Assembly (NCBI RefSeq): GCF_014649795.1
Contig: NZ_BMTS01000019.1
Coordinates: forward strand, 1-64,000
Length of the DNA: 64,000 bases
Direction of reading: 5' to 3'
Source of the DNA: Streptomyces melanogenes
GTDB lineage: Bacteria; Actinomycetota; Actinomycetes; Streptomycetales; Streptomycetaceae
Shown here: one piece after another, positions 47,165-56,325 of the stretch
How positions within the stretch are numbered: position 1 is the stretch's first letter
Layout: the number at the start of each line of letters is the position of its first letter
Program-made: the position numbers and the translations under genes
Notes under the pieces: model-generated
Told to the model about the DNA's origin: nothing
What the model saw: only the letters and a program-made list of their open reading frames with translations
Databases searched by the model: none

Positions 47165-47169
47165 GATCC

Positions 47170-47224
47170 GGCCCTGGAGTCCTAGCCCGGACACCAGGGA
47201 ACAAGTAACCCGCCAGTAGGTTCC
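47170..47224 (+). repeat. Left terminal inverted repeat (IRL)
   Basis: It matches the reverse complement of 56261-56315 over 55 bp with three mismatches (T/C at 47175, A/G near the middle, C/T near the inner end). The inner half reads CAAGTAACCCGCCAGTAGG. The GATCC target duplication lies immediately outside. Confidence 0.92.
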
Positions 47225-47314
47225 GGGGTTCGCTTCTGTGCCGTTTCCCGGTGCCGGGGCGCCTCGTTGGGCTGTCCGGGTGAATGCCCGGAGGGTCGAC
47301 GACAAGGGGCGGGT

Positions 47315-50263
47315 GTGCGACAGGAGTGGTCGCCGGAAGAGCTGTTGGCGAGCTGGACGCTGGTGGAAGGCGACTGGAAGCTCGTGGCCAACAAGACTGG
47401 GGTGACGCGGCTCGGCTTCTGCCTGATGCTGAAGTTCTTCGAGATCGAGGCCCGGTTCCCGGAGTTCATCGAGGAGTTCCCGCAGCCCGCCGTGGAGTAC
47501 GTCGCCGGTCTGATGAAGGTGCCGGCGGCGGAGCTCGCGAAGTACGACCTGGCGGGCGCGAAGCGTCACCGGAAGCAGATCCGCGAGGCCCTGGGGTTTA
47601 GGCCGTCGACGTTGGAGGACGAGGAACAGCTCACCACGTGGCTGGCCGCGGAGGTGTGCCCGGTCGAGCTGGTGGAGGACCGGCAGCGCGAGGCCCTGCT
47701 GGTCGAGTGCCGGGCGCGCAGTATCGAGCCACCGGGCCGGACCCGGATTGAGAAGGTGCTGGTCGCGGCCCGCAACCGGTGGGAGCGGGTGTTCTGTGCG
47801 CGGGCCATCGAGCGCCTGGGTGAGGTCGGGGTGGCCCGGCTGCTGGCGCTGGTCGCGGAGGGCAACGAGGACGGTGCCGCGCTGCTGGCGCTGCTCAAGC
47901 GGGACCCGGGCGCGGTCGGCCTGGACTCCCTGCTGACCGAGGTCACCAAGCTGAACGACGTGCGCCGACTCGGGCTGCCCGAGGGGCTGTTCGCGGACTG
48001 CTCGGAGAAACTGCTGGCCGCGTGGCGGGCACGGGCGATCAAGATGTACCCCTCGGACTTCCGCGACACCGCCGAGGACGTACGGATCACGCTGCTCGCG
48101 GCGCTGTGTTCCTCCCGGCAGGCGGAGATCACTGACGCCCTGGGGGACCTGCTGATCGCCCTGGTGCAGAAGATCAACGCCCGTGCCGAGCGGCGGGTCG
48201 AGAGGCAGCTGACGGCCGAGCTGAAGAAGGTCCGCGGCAAGGAGGGCATCCTTTTCAAGCTCGCCGACGCGGCGATCGGCCAGCCCGACAAGACCGTACG
48301 TACAGCCCTGTACCCGGTGGTCGGGGAGAAGACGCTGCGCGACCTGCTGGCCGAGGCGGAGGCGAACGAGAAGGTCTTCAAGGCCAAGGTCCGCACCACG
48401 CTGCGCTCGTCGTACAGCTCGTACTACCGGCAGATGCTGCCTCCCCTGCTGCGGACGCTGGGCTTCAAGTGCAACAACACCGCCTACCGGCCGGTAATGG
48501 ACGCGCTCGCGCTGCTGGAGAAGTACGCCGACGTCGACGGCAAGACCCGCTTCTACGACGCCGGCGACGCGGTCCCGATGGACGGCGTCGTCCGCAAGGA
48601 CTGGCGCGAGGCCGTCGTCGACGACAAGGGCACGGTCGAACGCATCCCGTACGAGCTGTGCGTCCTGGTCGCTCTGCGCGATGCGATCCGGCGGCGAGAG
48701 ATCTACGTCGAAGGCGGGAGGCGGTGGTGCAACCTGGAGGACGACCTGCTCGGCGACTTCGAGGCCACCCGCACCGTGCACTACGCGGCGATCCGTCAGC
48801 CGCTGGACGCGCGGGAGTTCATCACGGACCTCAAGCAGCGGATGACCAACGGCCTGGACCGGCTCACGGCCTCCCTCGCGGACGGCTCGTCGGGCGGGGT
48901 CAAGGTGACCACCCGGCACGGCGAGCCGTGGATCAGCGTGCCGAAGCTGGAGAAGCTGGACGAGCCCACCGGCCTCCAGGCCCTCAAGGACGAGGTAGTA
49001 CGGCGCTGGGGCGTGCTCGACCTCCTGGACGTGCTGAAGAACGCCGACTTCGACACCGGCTTCACCGACGAGTTCGCCTCCATCGCCGCGTACGAGCGCA
49101 TCGACCGCGCCGTCCTCCAACGACGCCTCCTCTTGGCCCTGTTCGCCCTCGGAACGAACATGGGCATCCGGGCCATCGTGGCGACCGGCGAGCACGGCGA
49201 GAGTGAGGCAGCACTGCGGCACGTGCGCCGGCACTTCATCACCGTCGACAACCTGCGGGCCGCCGTGCGGCAGCTGGTGAACGCCACCTTCACGGCCCGG
49301 GACACCGCATGGTGGGGCACCGGCACCGCGTGCGCGTCGGACTCGAAGAAGTTCGGGTCCTGGTCCTCGAACTTCATGACCGAGTACCACGCCCGCTACG
49401 GCGGCAACGGCGTGATGATCTACTGGCATGTGGAGCGGAAGAACGTCTGTATCTACTCCCAGCTCAAGAGCTGTTCGTCGTCCGAGGTCGCGGCGATGAT
49501 CGAGGGCCTTTTGCGGCACTGCACGGACACCGAGATCGAGTCGAACTACGTCGACACACACGGCGCGTCGGTCGTCGGGTTCGCCTTCACCGAGCTGCTC
49601 AACTTCCGTCTGCTGCCGAGGCTGAAGAACATTGGCAGCATCCGCCTGTACCGCCCGGACGACAGCCCGCCCGGCTGGCTGGCGCTCGGCGCCTCCCTGA
49701 CCCGGGCCATCAAGTGGGACCTGATCGCCCAGCAGTACGACCAGATGGTCAAGTACGCCACGGCCCTGCGCCTGGGCACCACGGAGGCGGAACAGGTCCT
49801 GCGCCGTTTCACCCGCGGCGGCCCCAAACACCCCACCTACGCCGCGCTCGAAGAACTCGGCCGCGCCGTGCGCACCATCTTCGCCTGCGACTACCTCGCC
49901 AACCCTGCCCTGCGCCGCGAGATCCACGGCGGCCTCCTGGTCGTGGAGAACTGGAACTCGGCGAATACCGTGCTGCACTACGGCAAGGACGGCGCGCTGA
50001 CCGGCCCGGACAAGGAGCACGCCGAGACCTCGATGCTCGCGCTCCACCTGCTCCAGTCCAGCCTGGTCCACATCAACACCCTGCTGCTTCAGCAGGTTCT
50101 TGCCGAACCGGCCTGGGCCAAGAGGCTCTCGGACGAGGACCGGCGCGGGCTGACCGCGCTCTTCTGGTCGAACGTCAACCCGTACGGCACCTTCCGTCTC
50201 GACATGGACAAGCGGCTTGACCTGGGGAGCCTTCCTCCCCGTCAGTTCATCGCTCGCAGCTGA
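47315..50263 (+). CDS. tnpA: Tn3-family transposase TnpA
   Basis: 982 residues from GTG 47315, preceded by AAGGGGCGG; a TTG-type start at 47267 would also keep frame. N-terminal DNA-binding region: [20 protein letters not shown], then [21 protein letters not shown]-terminal DDE catalytic domain: [20 protein letters not shown] (first Asp), [20 protein letters not shown] (second Asp), IGSIRLYRP, and the distal helical block [20 protein letters not shown] containing the likely Glu region. The length is normal for the family. The protein appears intact, consistent with the element's intact ends. The gene lies about 90 bp inside the left inverted repeat. Confidence 0.93.
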
Positions 50264-50276
50264 GAAGAGTGCCCTC

Positions 50277-52376
50277 ATGGAAGCGGGAGGCCGCCGTCAC
50301 CGGTGCACATGGCGAGCAGTGCTGATCGCGGCAGGGCTAACGGTGACGCTATGTGCGGCATGGGTAGGGCGATCACTGGTACGTGGCGGCTTGGCACCCC
50401 AGGACACCGCCAGTGTGATCGGACTGCTGGTCGGAGCCATGAGCCTGATGCCAGCGCTGATCGCACTGCGCCGTCGGCCCGAGACGGATCTGACGACCGC
50501 AGCCGATCGCCTGGCTGGCTGGGTCAAGAACGCCGAAGGGGCGCACTGGCGTCAACTGCTCGGTGGAGACCGGGTGCCCATCGACGTCAGATTCGACTTC
50601 TGTCCAACTCCGGGCCGTTCGGCAGTCGTGCCGCACGCACCTGCCGGATCCTTGCAGCGCGTGATCGATGACTTTCGGGCCACCCGCCCGCGCAGACTCG
50701 TCATCACCGGAGGCCCTGGGGCTGGCAAGACCGTACTGGCGACCAAACTGATGCTGGCGATCGTCGAGGAACGAACCGCCGACGAACCGGTGCCGGTGCG
50801 CATGGGCCTGGCCAGCTGGGATCCCGCCGTGCCCCTGAAGACGTGGCTCGTCAGCCGACTGGTCCAGGACTTCGACCGCGCTCCTCAAGTGGCCAAGGAT
50901 CTCGTGGAGCGGGGTCGTATCTTGCCTGTCCTGGACGGACTGGACGAGATGGACGCACCTGCCACCGCCGTACGTGACTCAAGAGCCAAGGCCGCGCTCA
51001 AAGCTCTGGACGCCTACCAGAACGGCGTTGATGGCGCTCCCTTCGTGCTCACGTGCCGCACGGCCCAGTACGACGCCCTGGCCGCAGCCGGACACCACGT
51101 GCCGGATACGGCCTACATCGAACTCTTTCCCGTGACCGCACCACAGGCACACACATACCTGACTGCGCGTCGGGTCTATCGCCCAGAGCGCTGGGACCCA
51201 GTGCTGGAGACCTTGCGAAGTCAACCGGCCGGGATCCTCGCACGCGTTCTGTCGACGCCGTGGCGGCTGACGCTCGCCGCCACCGTCTACGCAGAATCCG
51301 GAGATCCTTCCGAGCTGCTGGCACACACCTCCCCAGCCGAACTGGAGGAATACCTGCTCGCTCGCTACATTCCCGCCGTCACCGGCGTTCACTCCGGCAC
51401 CGGTGTGCCTTACACCTCGGCCCAGGTTCACGACTGGCTCGCCTGCATGGCGACCTACCTGGAAGCCGGCGCAGACTCCGCTCCCGAGACGCGTGGTGCT
51501 GTCGGCCCGGCCAGTGAACTCGTTCTTCACCGGCTGTGGAGGCTGGCTGGCCAAAGGCGTGTGCGAGCAGTCGATGTGCTCTTGTCTCTTCTGATCTTCT
51601 TGCCGGGTGCAGCCCTCTTCTACGCGCAGGTACCGCAGGTCACCACCGCTACCGGAAAGAACGTCACAGCTGTCGGAATCTGCGGTGTCATGCTGGCCCT
51701 CGCATACAGAGCCGGAACCCGCCACACACCGCCGCCCTCCAGCGCGCGCTGGCCGCGGCGGGGGACGTCAGCCAGGCGTCGCCTGGTTCGTCGTCGATGG
51801 AGAGTCGGCGCGGCAGCCGGGCTCACGGTGTGGGCTCTATGCGCCTGCACCCTCTGGCTTGTGCCGGTAATCGACCCCGACCTTTCGTTCTATGGGCCCT
51901 TTGGTCTCTCCCTCATCGGAGACGGTCTCGTGCTTGGGGCGTTCTGCGGTCTCCCATTCGGTGTTGTGGCAGGTATCTCGGCCTCCCCGAGAGGCGGCAC
52001 GACACAAGATGCCGCAGACCCATGGGGCCCGTTGCGCGGTGACACACTGGCCGGAACAGCTTCCGCTTTCGCCTACGGGGCGACGCTCAGCCTCTTGCTC
52101 GGACTCCCGGAGGGCCTTGCAGGGCCGGAAGGGCTCTGGTCTAGTCTTGAGACGGGAGTGACGTACGGACTGGTACTAGCGTTGTTGATTGGCGCGATGC
52201 GAATCCGCGCAGGTCGCCGCTATCTGGCCCTTCTGCTGTGTGCACGGGCACGGCTGCCCTGGCGGCTGGGAGCCTTTCTCGCCTGGTCCTGCGACGCTGG
52301 ACTATTGCGTACATCCGGGAGCACATATCAGTTCCGTCACCGCGAGTTGCAGGAATGGCTCGCCCGACACCCATGA
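50277..52376 (+). CDS. Membrane NACHT-type NTPase (transposon cargo)
   Basis: 699 residues from ATG 50277, 13 bp after the tnpA stop. One or two N-terminal spans (RAVLIAAGLTVTLCAAWVGR) lead to a P-loop NTPase: Walker A LVITGGPGAGKTVLATKLML at about 142-160, the NACHT Walker B RILPVLDGLDEMDAP at about 212-226, and a sensor-like FVLTCRTAQYDAL. The C-terminal third has at least six hydrophobic spans and ends in YQFRHRELQEWLARHP, a motif frequent at the end of streptomycete NACHT proteins. Bacterial NACHT ATPases include anti-phage defence proteins; that role for this one is inferred. Confidence 0.85.
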   Translation: MEAGGRRHRCTWRAVLIAAGLTVTLCAAWVGRSLVRGGLAPQDTASVIGLLVGAMSLMPALIALRRRPETDLTTAADRLAGWVKNAEGAHWRQLLGGDRVPIDVRFDFCPTPGRSAVVPHAPAGSLQRVIDDFRATRPRRLVITGGPGAGKTVLATKLMLAIVEERTADEPVPVRMGLASWDPAVPLKTWLVSRLVQDFDRAPQVAKDLVERGRILPVLDGLDEMDAPATAVRDSRAKAALKALDAYQNGVDGAPFVLTCRTAQYDALAAAGHHVPDTAYIELFPVTAPQAHTYLTARRVYRPERWDPVLETLRSQPAGILARVLSTPWRLTLAATVYAESGDPSELLAHTSPAELEEYLLARYIPAVTGVHSGTGVPYTSAQVHDWLACMATYLEAGADSAPETRGAVGPASELVLHRLWRLAGQRRVRAVDVLLSLLIFLPGAALFYAQVPQVTTATGKNVTAVGICGVMLALAYRAGTRHTPPPSSARWPRRGTSARRRLVRRRWRVGAAAGLTVWALCACTLWLVPVIDPDLSFYGPFGLSLIGDGLVLGAFCGLPFGVVAGISASPRGGTTQDAADPWGPLRGDTLAGTASAFAYGATLSLLLGLPEGLAGPEGLWSSLETGVTYGLVLALLIGAMRIRAGRRYLALLLCARARLPWRLGAFLAWSCDAGLLRTSGSTYQFRHRELQEWLARHP

Positions 52377-52608
52377 ACCTCATGGGATTGAGCAGCTCGA
52401 ACTCTCAAGCGCCAACCATTCGCTTCACTTGCTCCAGCCGCCCGCCTGTCGTCATTCGATGGTTTACCGACAGGCAAGGCAGACAGGGGTGCCGATGTCC
52501 GGGCCGTGGGTGGTCTGGACCTGGGCAAGGGGGACCGGTTATCCCGGGTCCAGTGAAGCCCGTAGTAATCGCCAGATGTGGGGTCGGGCTGGCCTCTACC
52601 CTGATGCG
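52377..52608. other. Gap between NACHT gene and nucleotidyltransferase
   Basis: About 230 bases with no supportable gene. It probably contains a promoter for the nucleotidyltransferase gene. Confidence 0.3.
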
Positions 52609-53163
52609 GTGAGCAACTATTCGATGTCAGCCAAGGATGTAGTCGCGCTTGTGGAGCGGCTCGACGCTCACGGCGTACATGCGTGTATTGGGGGCGGGTG
52701 GGGCGTGGATGCGCTGCTTGGGGAGCAGACGCGAGAACATTCCGACCTTGATGTATGGGCGCCGGCCGCACATCTTGAGCAGTTGTTCGTCGCGTTTGCT
52801 GAGGCTGGTGTCGACCGGATCTTCCCGTGGCCTGGTGACAGGCCGTGGAACTTCGTCTTGCACGACGGCGTTCGGTTGCGGGTCGACTTGCACCTCTACG
52901 AGCCGCTCGCGGACGGATCACTGCACTACGGATCCGTGGTGGAGGGCGGTCCTTTTCCGGCTGAAGCACTCGCCGGACGTGGTTCGATTGCCGGGACTGC
53001 GGTTCGGTGCGAGTCGGCCGAGTGGGCGGTGCGCTGGCATACCGGCTATCCGGCTCGTGATGTCGATCGCCACGACGTGCCCTTGCTGTGCCAGCGGTTC
53101 GGGATCACTGTGCCTGAGGGCTTCGGGCCGCTTGAGGAGCATTCCCCAAGCGGCCCGGCGTAG
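52609..53163 (+). CDS. Nucleotidyltransferase resembling lincosamide/ANT(2'')-type enzymes
   Basis: 184 residues from GTG 52609 (VSNYSMSAKDVVALVERL); an ATG at 52624 is possible. The key motif, CIGGGWGVDALLGEQTREHS followed by DLDVWAP, matches the G-G-W-x-(I/V)-D-x-x-x-G ... H-x-D-(I/L)-D metal/nucleotide site of Lnu(A)- and ANT(2'')-like enzymes, which adenylylate lincosamides or aminoglycosides. The conserved DRPWNFVLHDGVRLRVDLHL supplies a third Asp. Either an antibiotic-modifying enzyme or a relative with another substrate; resistance is inferred, not shown. Transposon cargo. Confidence 0.8.
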   Translation: MSNYSMSAKDVVALVERLDAHGVHACIGGGWGVDALLGEQTREHSDLDVWAPAAHLEQLFVAFAEAGVDRIFPWPGDRPWNFVLHDGVRLRVDLHLYEPLADGSLHYGSVVEGGPFPAEALAGRGSIAGTAVRCESAEWAVRWHTGYPARDVDRHDVPLLCQRFGITVPEGFGPLEEHSPSGPA

Positions 53164-53354
53164 ACGCAAGGGGCCCTTCTCGATCGGGGTCTGCTCGTGC
53201 CCGACGCAGGAGGCTCAGTCTCAATCTGGGGACTCCGCCAGCCTACGGCACGTTTCCGGCGTATTTCTTCCCTCCTGAAGACGACCAGCGGGCTCAACGG
53301 CGCCTCGTGTCGGCGTGCTTGCCGTCGTGCGGTGGGGCAGGCCAGCATGCTCGG

Positions 53355-54938
53355 ATGGCAGCCGATTGGTTGGAGCAGAGCCTGCTCGACGCGGTCCGCG
53401 ACGGCGAGATGCTGGACCTGGCCGGTGACGGGCCGGTCGACGAGGCCGCGATGCGGTCCTGGGACAGCACTCACACCGTCCCGGCGGCGCTGATCCGTGA
53501 CCTGGTCCGCCGCCGCCGGGACATCGAGGCGGACCCGCACGGGCTGCGGCTGCGCGGGGCGCGCATCACCGGCCGCGTCGACCTGGCGAACATCACCAGC
53601 GATCTGCGGGTCGAGCTGGTCGACTGCTTCGTCCCCGACGGTCTGAACCTGTGCGACAGCCAGCTGACCGGCCTCGTGCTGGACGGTTCCTGTTTCGGGC
53701 ACCCCGCGGATTCGCACGACCCACCGGTTGACGCCGCACGCTTCACCGCGCCGGCGATGACGATGCGCGGAGCGGTTGCCAACGCCGACACACCTTCCGG
53801 CGCGGTCCGGTTCCTCGGCGCCCACCTCGGTCTGCTGGATTGCGACGGTGCGCGGCTGGCGAACACGTCCGGTCCTGCCCTGCACGCCGAGTTTCTGCGG
53901 GTCGATCACAGCGTGTTCCTCCGCGACGGGTTCCAGGCCACCGGCGTCGGCGAACAAGGCACGGTCCGGTTCGCCTACGCCCATCTCGGTCGGCTGGCAT
54001 GCGACGGTGCGCGGTTGGCGAACACCTCCGGTCCCGCCCTGCACGCCGACGGTCTGCGGGTCGACCGAGCCGTGTTCCTCCGGGCCGGGTTCCGGGCAAC
54101 CGGCTCGGTCCAGCTGGTCGATGCCCACCTCGGTCTGCTGGATTGCGACGAGGCGCGGTTAGAGAACATGTCCGGACCGGCCCTGCACGCCGACGGTCTG
54201 CGGGTCGACCGAGCCGTGTTCCTCCGTGCCGGGTTCCGGGCAACCGGCGCCGGACACTCCGTGCTCGCCTTGAACGGCGTGTCGGTCGGTTCGCTGTGGT
54301 TGGACACCAGCGGGGTGACTCGGTCGGGTCAGGCCACGGGGGCCCTGGTCGGCATCGACGGGCTGACCTACGGGGACCTGCCGGCGCCGGTCGGGTTGTC
54401 CAGGTGGCTGGAGCTGTTGCGTGACCACACGCCCGGCTACTCCGCTCAGCCGTACCAGCAGTTGGCCGCCGTCCACCGGGCGGCCGGTCACGACAGCGAG
54501 GTGCGGGACATTCTCATGGCGCAGCGGCGGGACCAGATCGACCGCGGCGGGCTTCGCTGGCGTGACCGGGCCTGGGCCCGATTCACCGGGCTGGCCCTCG
54601 GCTTCGGTTATCAACCCTGGCGAGCGCTGCTGCTGCTGTTCGCCGTCGTCGCCAGCTCGGTCGCGCTGGCGGTCGTCCTCGGCGGGCCGGGCGGCGGCCT
54701 GGAGCACACCGCCCGCGCGAGCACACCCACGACGCCCTGCAGCGTCGTGGAGCGGGTCGGCGTGGGTATGGATCTGGGTCTGCCAGCGGTCAAGACGGGG
54801 GCGGCTGACCTGTGTGCCCCCACCGGCACCCATGCAGGGCAGACCCTCACCGTCGCGGGCTGGCTGCTGCAGCTGGCCGCGTGGGCGTCGGCCACCCTGT
54901 TCATCGCCGGCTTCACCGGCGCCGTGCGCAAGACCTGA
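53355..54938 (+). CDS. Beta-helix-repeat membrane protein ("membrane-associated oxidoreductase" type)
   Basis: 527 residues from ATG 53355 (MAADWLEQSLLDAVRDGEML). The central region is pentapeptide/right-handed-beta-helix-like: LRLRGARITGRVDLANITSD, then three 48-residue tandem units containing CDGARLANTSGPALHADGLR, VDRAVFLRAGFRATG. The C-terminal part has DHTPGYSAQPYQQLAAVHRA, a span ALLLLFAVVASSVALAVVLG and a last span LLQLAAWASATLFIAGFTGA. The family is usually annotated as a membrane-associated oxidoreductase, but I see no cofactor motif; a scaffold or DNA-mimic role is as likely. The near-identical second and third repeats indicate recent internal duplication. Confidence 0.82.
   Translation: MAADWLEQSLLDAVRDGEMLDLAGDGPVDEAAMRSWDSTHTVPAALIRDLVRRRRDIEADPHGLRLRGARITGRVDLANITSDLRVELVDCFVPDGLNLCDSQLTGLVLDGSCFGHPADSHDPPVDAARFTAPAMTMRGAVANADTPSGAVRFLGAHLGLLDCDGARLANTSGPALHAEFLRVDHSVFLRDGFQATGVGEQGTVRFAYAHLGRLACDGARLANTSGPALHADGLRVDRAVFLRAGFRATGSVQLVDAHLGLLDCDEARLENMSGPALHADGLRVDRAVFLRAGFRATGAGHSVLALNGVSVGSLWLDTSGVTRSGQATGALVGIDGLTYGDLPAPVGLSRWLELLRDHTPGYSAQPYQQLAAVHRAAGHDSEVRDILMAQRRDQIDRGGLRWRDRAWARFTGLALGFGYQPWRALLLLFAVVASSVALAVVLGGPGGGLEHTARASTPTTPCSVVERVGVGMDLGLPAVKTGAADLCAPTGTHAGQTLTVAGWLLQLAAWASATLFIAGFTGAVRKT
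53805..54251 (+). repeat. Three tandem coding repeats (144-159 bp)
   Basis: Units begin at about 53805, 53964 and 54108. Each encodes an AHLGxLxCDxARLxNxSGPALHA, xxLRVDxxVFLRxGFxATG block. Units two and three are almost identical at the DNA level over long stretches and are exactly 144 bp apart, while unit one is longer and more divergent. Confidence 0.75.
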
Positions 54939-54986
54939 CGATTCGCCGAAATGAAGATATGCCCGAAATCAAGATCGGTCCGGCGA

Positions 54987-55059
54987 TCGTGAGGCGGGAT
55001 TCGAACCCGCGACCTCCGCCACGCAGGTAGCGGCGCTCAACCCGCTGAGCTACTCGGCC
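54987..55059 (-). tRNA. tRNA-like sequence with disrupted acceptor stem and 8-nt anticodon loop
   Basis: On the minus strand the sequence has a canonical D arm (TAGCTCAGCGGGTTGAGC), a T arm (GCGGGTTCGAATCCCGC) and a five-base variable loop. The anticodon stem CCGCT/GGCGG encloses eight bases (ACCTGCGT) instead of seven. Only the three inner pairs of the seven-pair acceptor stem form; the outer four (GGCC against ACGA) do not. It is therefore a tRNA-derived pseudogene or a specialised tRNA-like RNA. It sits inside the transposon between the beta-helix gene and the resolvase. The anticodon cannot be assigned safely. Confidence 0.7.
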
Positions 55060-55072
55060 CGGGCGGCGTTCC

Positions 55073-55203
55073 GTAGGCGTCGGCAAACGTTCGAATGACG
55101 ACAGGCTGCGTGCGCGTCCAATGAACCCGTGCAATCCAAGGGCTCGCGGCGGCCCGAATCCAATCAGATCCGATGGTGATTGCTGACAGGGTTTGACGAC
55201 AGA
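55073..55203. promoter_or_regulatory. Candidate resolution (res) site upstream of resolvase
   Basis: Two dyad-like elements, GTCGGCAAACGTTCGAATGA near 55079 and TTGCTGACAGGGTTTGACGA near 55180, lie between the tRNA-like sequence and the resolvase start, the usual place for res subsites in Tn3-family elements. The G+C content is lower here. The subsite boundaries are inferred only. Confidence 0.4.
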
Positions 55204-55237
55204 TAGGGTCCATTCCTCCGCAAGGAAGGGGCACTCG

Positions 55238-55735
55238 GTGGCGAACCTGGTCTACAAGCGGGTCTCGACCGACCAGCAGTCGACCGACCGTCAGAACCTC
55301 GTCCTGGACGAGGCCGGGATCGAGGACCCGGTCGTCTTCGAGGAGGAGCCGGGCACCTCCAGCCGCCTCCACCCGCTTGAGCGGCCGAAGTTCAGCGAGC
55401 TGCTGATGTACGCGCGGCCGGGCGACACCGTGCACATCTCCGAGATGTTCCGCCTGGTGCGCGGCACCGGGCACATTCTCGACCTCCTCGACGTCCTCCA
55501 CCGCGACCGCCTCGCCCTGCGCATCCACGACGGCGCGTTCTCCGCCATGGACCTCACCGCCCGCCACCCGCGCACCGGCGAGCTGCTGTCCACCGTGAAG
55601 TTCATGGTGCAGACCCTCGCCGCCGCCGGCGAACTCCAGCGCGACCTCCAGCGTGAACTGACCTACGACGGACTGCGCGCCGCCGAGGCCAAGGGTAACA
55701 AGGGCGGACGCCGCCCGGCCGTCACGGCCGCGTAG
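55238..55735 (+). CDS. Serine resolvase catalytic domain (TnpR), ends at in-frame TAG
   Basis: 165 residues from GTG 55238, with CAAGGAAGG upstream. Catalytic N-terminal domain: LVYKRVSTDQQSTDRQNLVL (nucleophile Ser of the YxRVST motif), RPKFSELLMYARPGDTVHIS, EMFRLVRGTGHILDLLDVLH and LLSTVKFMVQTLAAAGELQR, DLQRELTYDGLRAAEAKGNK. It ends GGRRPAVTAA then TAG at 55733-55735, precisely where the DNA-binding HTH normally begins. That HTH continues in the same frame after the stop. It is probably the resolvase of the surrounding transposon. Confidence 0.88.
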   Translation: MANLVYKRVSTDQQSTDRQNLVLDEAGIEDPVVFEEEPGTSSRLHPLERPKFSELLMYARPGDTVHISEMFRLVRGTGHILDLLDVLHRDRLALRIHDGAFSAMDLTARHPRTGELLSTVKFMVQTLAAAGELQRDLQRELTYDGLRAAEAKGNKGGRRPAVTAA

Positions 55736-55744
55736 GCCGCCGCC

Positions 55745-56155
55745 GTGCGCGCCGGGTACCTGGGCGGCCGGTCCATCGCCGGTCTGGCCCGCGACCACCA
55801 CGTCAGCCGGGGTGCCATCCGCACGGCCGTCGCCGACCTCATGCCCGAGCACACCACCGACCACCAGGACGCCCCGGCCCCGGAGTTGCCGGTCACCCTC
55901 GACATGCCGGGCAAGGTCGCCGACTTCCTCCGCGCGGCCGACCTGGAGCCCGCCGAGCAGGCCGCGCTCGACCAGGGCGTGACCGTACGGCGCGGCCAGG
56001 GCTACACCCTCCGCGTCCCCGCGGTGCCCTCGGTCCACCGTCAACTCCTCGGCCGCTGCCAGCCGCTCGACGCCCCCGCAGCGATCCCCGCCCAGCGCAA
56101 GGCCCGCCGCGAGTACGCGAACCGCGTCAGCACCCTCGGGACCGAGACCCCGTAG
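55745..56155 (+). pseudogene. Separated C-terminal HTH part of resolvase
   Basis: In frame with the resolvase but downstream of its TAG; a GTG at 55745 could start it. It begins VRAGYLGGRSIAGLARDHHV, then SRGAIRTAVADLMPEHTTDH, the resolvase-type HTH, and extends about 90 residues further (LDMPGKVADFLRAADLEPAE) than classical resolvases. Either the amber codon broke a longer resolvase, the stop is read through, or the two halves are made separately. Confidence 0.7.
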
Positions 56156-56260
56156 CAAGCCATCCGGGCTTCAAAATCAAGGGGCTTCCGACCTGCGACA
56201 TGTCGAAGGCCTTCGCCGTTCCGCCGGTCACCAGCGCCTTCGGATCGAAGGGCCAGGGTC

Positions 56261-56315
56261 GAAACCTACTGGCGGGTTACTTGCTCCCTGGTGTCCGGGC
56301 TAGGACTCCGGGGCC
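56261..56315 (-). repeat. Right terminal inverted repeat (IRR)
   Basis: Inverse of the left end, with GGCCCCGGAGTCCTAG read outward-in on the minus strand. It is followed by the GATCC target duplication at 56316-56320. Confidence 0.92.
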
Positions 56316-56325
56316 GATCCGTGAG

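What the first reader, a model, noticed from the sequence alone, without database searches (positions are those of the whole stretch)
54987..55059. tRNA-like element with 8-nt anticodon loop inside the transposon
The D arm, T arm and variable loop are canonical, but the anticodon loop has eight bases and the outer four acceptor pairs are lost. It may be a pseudo-tRNA captured with cargo, a frameshift-type tRNA, or a tRNA-mimicking regulatory RNA. Its position beside the resolvase and candidate res site is odd.
Basis: seen in the sequence. Interest (0 to 1): 0.6.

Follow-up and report, generated by a model that had tools for sequence, protein, structure and literature searches.

The report
Decaying tRNA relic in transposon cargo
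A worn-out transfer-RNA gene, carried along with a passenger gene that ended up next to a transposon's recombination site in a Streptomyces, is almost certainly a dead leftover and not a working decoder or regulator.

Summary
The tRNA-like element is real: minus strand 55059-54987, Rfam tRNA 37.6 bits against a cut-off of 29. D, T and variable regions are canonical; only three inner acceptor pairs remain. The "8-nt anticodon loop" depends on register: a 7-nt register is predicted to be more stable, and a 7-bp stem with a 4-nt loop more stable still. Neither open-loop register has U33.

The element belongs to a passenger module: a convergent, membrane-protein-like gene (53307-54938) plus the tRNA relic. 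Two other Streptomyces chromosomal loci, outside any such transposon, carry the full element; no normal tRNA was found at that place. Among relatives it degenerates in different ways: pairs broken without compensation, 3' part only, 3' half inverted, or absent while the protein stays 94% identical. It changes as fast as the gene or faster. Its cloverleaf lies 9.4 kcal/mol above the MFE, more than for any of 44 tRNAs compared from the same genome.

Its place beside the resolvase is explained: cargo ends at res site I, a known module-exchange point of Tn3-family transposons.

Verdict: a pseudo-tRNA hitch-hiking in Tn3-family cargo. Frameshift-tRNA and regulatory-mimic readings find little support. 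Low interest.

The parts
54987..55059 (-). tRNA-like relic (pseudo-tRNA); inner 3 acceptor pairs, D arm, T arm intact; outer 4 acceptor pairs lost; anticodon arm predicted to fold as a 7-bp stem with a 4-nt loop
   Evidence: Rfam RF00005 37.6 bits at 55055-54991; not called by ARAGORN; energies
54939..54986 (.). spacer between relic and cargo gene, present in all six close copies of the module; holds most of a terminator-like hairpin on the minus strand (54988-54973)
   Evidence: alignment of six copies
53307..54938 (+). cargo gene convergent with the relic; 543-aa protein, no Pfam, NCBIfam or PADLOC match at E <= 0.001, internal ~150-bp repeats, hydrophobic stretches near the C-terminus (read from the sequence)
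   Evidence: repeats; relatives
55056..55078 (.).
   Evidence: module homology starts at 55055; res homology mostly ends at 55079
55079..55190 (.). res region; site I lies at its cargo end (about 55079-55106)
   Evidence: conserved in many Streptomyces loci; site I palindrome
52444..52471 (.). second, inverted copy of the site-I sequence on the far side of the cargo
   Evidence: inverted repeat I5, 28 nt, 89%; 5 mismatches to the site I consensus
55193..55735 (+). serine resolvase, catalytic domain only; the frame stops at 55735 although the same frame continues to 56155
   Evidence: PF00239; read-through and comparison with relatives
52636..53163 (+). nucleotidyltransferase-like cargo gene (Pfam Aminoglyc_resit over its cut-off; NCBIfam lincosamide Lnu models match below their cut-offs)
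50217..52376 (+). NACHT-domain protein gene
   Evidence: PF05729
47267..50263 (+). Tn3-family transposase
   Evidence: PF01526, NF033527
47169..47225 (.). left terminal inverted repeat
   Evidence: I1, 57 nt, 95%
56260..56316 (.). right terminal inverted repeat
   Evidence: I1

Best explanation
The element is a decaying pseudo-tRNA. A tRNA-like gene lay beside, and convergent with, a membrane-protein-like gene in a Streptomyces chromosome (that arrangement is seen in two relatives; the original working tRNA is inferred). The pair became cargo of a Tn3-family transposon at the site-I edge of its res region (the sharp edge is shown; resolvase-mediated exchange is inferred from the published mechanism). 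The relic makes no working tRNA and has no selected role; it persists because it is hitched to the cargo and is being lost independently in different lineages.
For: Homology to tRNA: Rfam 37.6 bits. Module membership: homology to G228 and G243 runs from 55055 through the relic into the cargo gene at 93-95%; the 13-14 kb around those two copies hold no match to the window's transposase, resolvase, res, TIRs or site I. Decay: on three full copies and 21 pairs, 0 pairs have a change on both sides; pairs depart only by becoming unpaired, 2 in the D stem, 1 in the T stem, the rest in the acceptor. Rfam falls from 37.6 (window) to 34.8 (L052) to no tRNA match at E<=10 (L053). S. violascens keeps the 3' part only, S. 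rishiriensis has a 40-nt 3' half inverted beside res, S. filipinensis lacks it while its protein is 94% identical. Rate (one-sided Fisher): L052-L053 8/69 in the relic against 10/436 in the gene, p = 0.001; window-L053 7/69 against 16/439, p = 0.026; window-L052 4/69 against 17/436, p = 0.32. Fold: cloverleaf 9.4 kcal/mol above the MFE; 0 of 44 own-genome tRNAs compared have a gap that large, maximum 7.7. No sigma-70-type promoter in 54850-55300.
Against: No intact ancestor tRNA was found at this place. A terminator-like hairpin (5 pairs, then a T-rich tail) lies on the minus strand at 54988-54973, right at the relic's 3' end, where a transcribed tRNA gene might have one (1 found, 0.2 expected from shuffles). 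The anticodon stem does not vary and the arm has only one change in the three full copies, which keeps the extra closing pair; similar letters recur in the inverted 3' half of L083. Three close sequences give little power, and the shuffle control does not speak for pairing (78.3% against 77.8% observed). One of three rate comparisons is not significant; against the 48-nt spacer (1/48, 4/48, 3/48 for the same pairs) the relic (4/69, 7/69, 8/69) is higher each time, but the counts are small. Streptomyces promoters are often missed by a sigma-70 consensus, so the absence says little.
Confidence: 0.88

Rival explanations
1. It is a functional tRNA with an enlarged anticodon loop that reads four bases (frameshift-suppressor type).
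For: One register gives an 8-nt loop, kept in all three full copies; D and T arms are canonical; a terminator-like hairpin follows it.
Against: Only 3 acceptor pairs; no U33 in either open-loop register; the loop is predicted to pair shut to a CUGC tetraloop, -10.1 against -6.2 kcal/mol; the MFE fold is not a cloverleaf; one of three full copies has D- and T-stem breaks.
Confidence: 0.02
2. It is a tRNA-mimicking regulatory or decoy RNA that serves the cargo gene or the transposon (for example a 3'-end structure of the convergent cargo gene's mRNA or a decoy for a tRNA-acting enzyme).
For: It stays beside the same gene in three loci; the 7-bp hairpin in place of an anticodon loop can be drawn in all three full copies, in one with A-U changed to G-U.
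Against: S. filipinensis keeps the protein at 94% identity without the element; no compensatory change; faster change than the gene in two of three pairs.
Confidence: 0.04
3. It is an attachment-site remnant: the tRNA end left by an integrative element that once used this tRNA gene, later carried with the cargo.
For: 3' halves without the 5' half in L082 and L083; in the distant homologue L085 a real tRNA-Met also lies convergent, about 250 bp after the gene end.
Against: Both halves are present in three copies; no integrase among 19 predicted proteins around G228 and G243 scanned against Pfam (ORFs picked by a codon-bias rule, 9 of 10 for G228 and 10 of 11 for G243 scanned); the L085 tRNA is a normal tRNA-Met and not a close sequence relative.
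Confidence: 0.06

Closest known systems
tRNA genes of Rfam RF00005; among the sequences fetched the nearest are tRNA-Asp(GTC) of actinobacterial plasmids and genomes and tRNA-His(GTG)
   Same: D arm, T arm, variable loop; local alignment over about 60-70 nt
   Different: acceptor reduced to 3 pairs, no U33, no open 7-nt loop favoured, no close match among 46 distinct own-genome tRNAs compared
pseudo-tRNAs / tRNA remnants in genomes and mobile elements (general kind, recalled)
   Same: detectable homology, lost pairs, patchy loss among relatives
   Different: lies in Tn3-family cargo right next to res; my paper searches (listings only) listed no report of that place
res-site module exchange in Tn3-family transposons (mBio 2020, PMC7157771; passages seen)
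   Same: passenger DNA abuts res site I, and homology breaks at the crossover site
   Different: passenger here is a nucleotidyltransferase-like gene, a membrane-like gene and a tRNA relic, not a toxin-antitoxin pair; the term tRNA does not occur in that paper's main text
YrlA (Y RNA-like, RF02553)
   Same: tRNA-like arms; weak, below-cut-off scores at two loci that share 25 letters of the T arm and at the rearranged L083 junction (20.5 bits)
   Different: in the YrlA alignments the T-arm-like hairpin comes before the D-arm-like one; the window element has tRNA order and is not listed under YrlA up to E = 10

Membership tests
functional bacterial tRNA | tRNA covariance model score over the gathering cut-off | tested here: met
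   37.6 against 29 bits
functional bacterial tRNA | 7-bp acceptor stem | tested here: not met
   three inner pairs only in the window (sequence); 47.6% of acceptor cells paired over three copies
functional bacterial tRNA | 7-nt anticodon loop with U33 and purine 37 | tested here: not met
   8-nt register ACCUGCGU or 7-nt register UACCUGC, neither with U33; optimum has a 4-nt loop
functional bacterial tRNA | called by a tRNA gene finder | tested here: not met
   ARAGORN none in the window; one of two full relatives called, as tRNA-Arg(cct)
functional bacterial tRNA | cloverleaf at or near the minimum free energy | tested here: not met
   gap 9.4 kcal/mol; 0 of 44 own-genome tRNAs as large
functional bacterial tRNA | processing, CCA addition, aminoacylation | not testable with these tools
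   needs RNA work
pseudo-tRNA | tRNA homology with disrupted pairing | tested here: met
pseudo-tRNA | independent decay or loss in relatives without compensation | tested here: met
   0 of 21 pairs with a change on both sides, three copies only; truncation, inversion, absence in three named loci
pseudo-tRNA | intact parental tRNA identified | tested here: inconclusive
   no close parent among 46 own tRNAs nor at the related loci examined; not every tRNA of the genus was compared
frameshift-suppressor tRNA | open 8-nt anticodon loop on an otherwise normal tRNA body (definition recalled) | tested here: not met
   loop predicted to pair shut, acceptor lost
YrlA RNA | match to RF02553 | tested here: not met
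   no YrlA match in 54900-55200 up to E = 10
Tn3-family transposon (the carrier) | TIRs, Tn3 transposase, resolvase and res | tested here: met
   the resolvase is cut short

The most novel reading that the evidence does not exclude
The relic has been re-purposed as a small tRNA-shaped RNA whose anticodon loop is replaced by a closed 7-bp hairpin with a CUGC (in L083 CUGU) tetraloop, followed by a terminator-like hairpin, and kept beside the membrane-protein gene as a decoy or 3'-end element; the absence in S. filipinensis would then be a secondary loss.
Probability: 0.04. Interest if true: 0.5.

Novelty: new member of a known kind. Interest (0 to 1): 0.12.

Why it matters
Mostly as a caution: a canonical-looking D/T-arm pair with a strange anticodon loop is what a decaying tRNA looks like. 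The surroundings add an actinobacterial example of cargo joining a recombinase unit at res site I. If the small-RNA reading were true, it would be a tRNA mimic carried as transposon cargo, which would be worth study, but the evidence points the other way.

Tried and rejected
Exact-pattern scan of genome contigs for the anticodon-arm core: 0 stretches. Pattern scan of viral contigs: 0. Module against plasmids: no match at E <= 1e-10. A 3-mismatch pattern over 392 Streptomyces genomes matched in 54, but only three places have 0 mismatches (own, G228, G243). I looked at the 30 match places returned as loci (one is the window itself, one G243); ARAGORN calls no tRNA in any of the 30 and the other 28 read as chance matches; matches without a locus were not inspected. 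Idea that the element is a YrlA RNA: rejected. Idea that it is a copy of one of the genome's own tRNAs: no close one among 46 compared. Idea that res-bearing relatives carry a tRNA at this place: ARAGORN on 27 res loci (L054-L080) found one tRNA, a tRNA-Leu about 430 bp from the res match (L065); Rfam on 20 of these 27 found only the same one. Five distant homologues (L084-L088) show no copy of the relic just beyond the gene end by eye, blastn to the window or Rfam. Relic comparisons with L082 (11/57, 14/57, 12/57 differences) were dropped from the rate test, since L082 is homologous only up to window 55026 and the rest of that alignment is forced. Structure prediction of the cargo protein was not run.

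Full report
What is there. The window lies in a 9.6-Mb genome (G000, contig 19). Its genus is Streptomyces: genomes listed as same genus coincide with named records, for example G259 contig 2 with NZ_CP108570.1, Streptomyces sp. NBC_01197 (same length and match place). A Tn3-family transposon spans 47169-56316: 57-nt terminal inverted repeats, 95% complementary, Tn3 transposase 47267-50263, a NACHT protein gene, a nucleotidyltransferase-like gene, an unassigned gene 53307-54938, and a serine resolvase from 55193. The tRNA-like element is on the minus strand, 55059-54987, convergent with the unassigned gene. It is the only Rfam match over cut-off in the window (37.6 bits, gathering 29) and the second lowest of 71 tRNA matches in the genome. 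ARAGORN does not call it.

Anatomy. The 8-nt anticodon loop is not the only register. For the isolated arm, the 8-nt register scores -6.2, a 7-nt register -7.7 and a 7-bp stem closed by CUGC -10.1 kcal/mol. Neither open-loop register puts U at position 33. The whole element does not prefer a cloverleaf: cloverleaf with three acceptor pairs -23.0, MFE -32.4. For 44 of the 46 distinct tRNAs recovered from 50 fetched own-genome loci (two dropped for length over 80 or unbalanced brackets), the same gap has median 1.8 and maximum 7.7, so none reaches 9.4. The MFE of the element with short flanks is no better than shuffled sequence (z = -0.11; no real tRNA was put through that particular test).

Relatives. 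Searching 392 Streptomyces genomes with the stretch 54940-55190 gave matches in 181, of three kinds: the res part, the tRNA-plus-downstream part, and ordinary tRNA genes that share arms. Only two other genomes, G228 and G243, hold the full element; the mismatch-tolerant pattern search agrees (0-mismatch matches in own, G228 and G243 only). A search of 395 relatives with the whole module found G228 and otherwise short matches, among them tRNA-His and tRNA-Asp genes. In both, the pair lies on contigs of 9-11 Mb, beside a phosphotransferase-family (APH) gene in G243; G228 and G243 share the DNA on that side too, for about 430 bases. The 13-14 kb fetched hold no match to the window's transposase, resolvase, res, TIRs or site I, and 19 predicted proteins there include no integrase or transposase by Pfam. 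A protein search of genome contigs gave eight loci. Three are close: S. filipinensis (94%) lacks the relic; S. violascens (94%) keeps only the 3' part; S. rishiriensis (82% in the best segment) has a 40-nt 3' half in inverted orientation beside an inverted piece of res, with pieces of the same transposase and resolvase around it. The first two show no such transposon parts. Five loci are distant (31-50%) and show no copy of the relic; in one of them, Pseudonocardia L085, a normal tRNA-Met lies convergent about 250 bp after the gene, which may be coincidence.

Test of decay. On the three full copies, 21 named pairs: 0 with a change on both sides, 0 further pair types. Three acceptor pairs are unpaired in all three copies and two more in one copy each; in the D stem two of four pairs and in the T stem one of five are broken in one copy; the anticodon stem does not vary. 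Sliding the partners drops paired cells from 77.8% to 40-52%, which shows tRNA ancestry; the shuffle control (78.3%) adds nothing for the structure. L053 is the most broken, and no tRNA match appears for it even at E<=10. Differences in the relic (69 sites) against the last 439 bases of the gene: window-L052 4/69 and 17/436 (p 0.32), window-L053 7/69 and 16/439 (p 0.026), L052-L053 8/69 and 10/436 (p 0.001); the 48-nt spacer gives 1, 4 and 3. These comparisons share sequences and are not independent. The single anticodon-arm change (A to G in L053) keeps the extra closing pair as G-U, so the long hairpin can be drawn in all three copies. With 9 variable columns among 69, one in the 18-nt arm is not remarkable.

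Against this reading stands a terminator-like hairpin on the minus strand at 54988-54973, directly at the relic's 3' end (one found, 0.2 expected). It could be a leftover of the once transcribed tRNA gene. No sigma-70-type promoter is seen in 54850-55300, a weak negative in Streptomyces.

Why beside res. In 27 fetched res loci (L054-L080), 24 have, at the end of the homology, a palindrome TGTCGTCAAACG-AT-CGTTTGACGACA with at most 4 mismatches. The other three have 10-11: L070 has a palindrome that lacks the middle four bases, and L078 and L079 keep one half. What follows on the cargo side is mostly unrelated (mean pairwise ungapped identity 0.31 over 351 pairs; the maximum of 0.98 shows that some pairs are true relatives). 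A shuffled-site control gave 0.05 matches per 16 loci, against a site in 15 of the 16 19-kb loci. The window's own site I has 5 mismatches, and an inverted partner with 5 mismatches lies at 52444-52471, so the nucleotidyltransferase-like gene, the cargo gene and the relic are bracketed by inverted site I copies. Passages of PMC7157771 (mBio 2020) describe recombination of Tn3-family left ends at res site I and passengers that abut it. The place is thus a known kind of module junction; that resolvase made this junction is inferred.

Closest kin. Among the sequences fetched, the relic aligns best with tRNA-Asp(GTC) of plasmid arrays of Mycolicibacterium and Tsukamurella and tRNA-His(GTG) of other genomes of the class. 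It matches none of 46 own tRNAs closely. No parent can be named.

Judgement. A pseudo-tRNA hitch-hiking with a cargo gene explains the observations. Frameshift-tRNA and mimic readings need an open loop, an acceptor stem or conservation by compensation, none of which is seen. Absence of an intact ancestor and the small number of full copies (three) are the main limits.

Noticed in passing
window 55193-56155: The resolvase frame has an in-frame stop ending at 55735 while the same frame continues to 56155 with an HTH-like stretch; of 12 relatives tried, 9 gave an alignment at that place and all 9 have a sense codon there, so intact copies exist and the window copy lacks its C-terminal part.
   Followed up: partly
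window 55079-56137; loci L167-L182: A unit of about 1.06 kb (site I, res, serine recombinase) recurs at 84-89% in Streptomyces genomes: 10 of 16 fetched 19-kb loci hold it over the full length, six only in part. Only 1 of 16 has a transposase stretch close to this one (70%), four have distant ones (22-28%), 11 none; TIR-like letters in 1 of 16. It may be a free-standing recombinase unit.
   Followed up: partly
L170 (G351:C2:559000-578000): Two res-recombinase units lie in inverted orientation about 5 kb apart, their sites I facing a segment that encodes a distant Tn3-like transposase.
   Followed up: no
window 52444-52471 and 55079-55106: Inverted copies of site I bracket the cargo 52472-55078, a possible invertible segment if the recombinase were intact.
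   Followed up: partly
L083 7488-7590: In S. rishiriensis a 40-nt tRNA 3' half and a 62-nt piece of res are each inverted relative to the window, side by side.
   Followed up: partly
window 54973-54988, minus strand: A terminator-like hairpin directly at the 3' end of the relic, mostly in the spacer shared by the six close copies.
   Followed up: no
G000:C1:748319-748388 and G000:C31:48569-48638 (L033, L034): Two copies of an odd tRNA-Gly(TCC)-like gene with a non-canonical T arm (GGUGCAAGGCC) at 39.7 and 38.6 Rfam bits in the same genome.
   Followed up: no
L103, L104: Plasmids of Tsukamurella tyrosinosolvens and Mycolicibacterium sp. carry 18 and 20 tRNA genes within about 6 kb, with no RNA genes in the collection's table.
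   Followed up: no
L092, L093: Two Streptomyces loci that share 25 letters of the T arm score as YrlA (Y RNA-like) at 33-38 bits, well below the family cut-off of 69.
   Followed up: no
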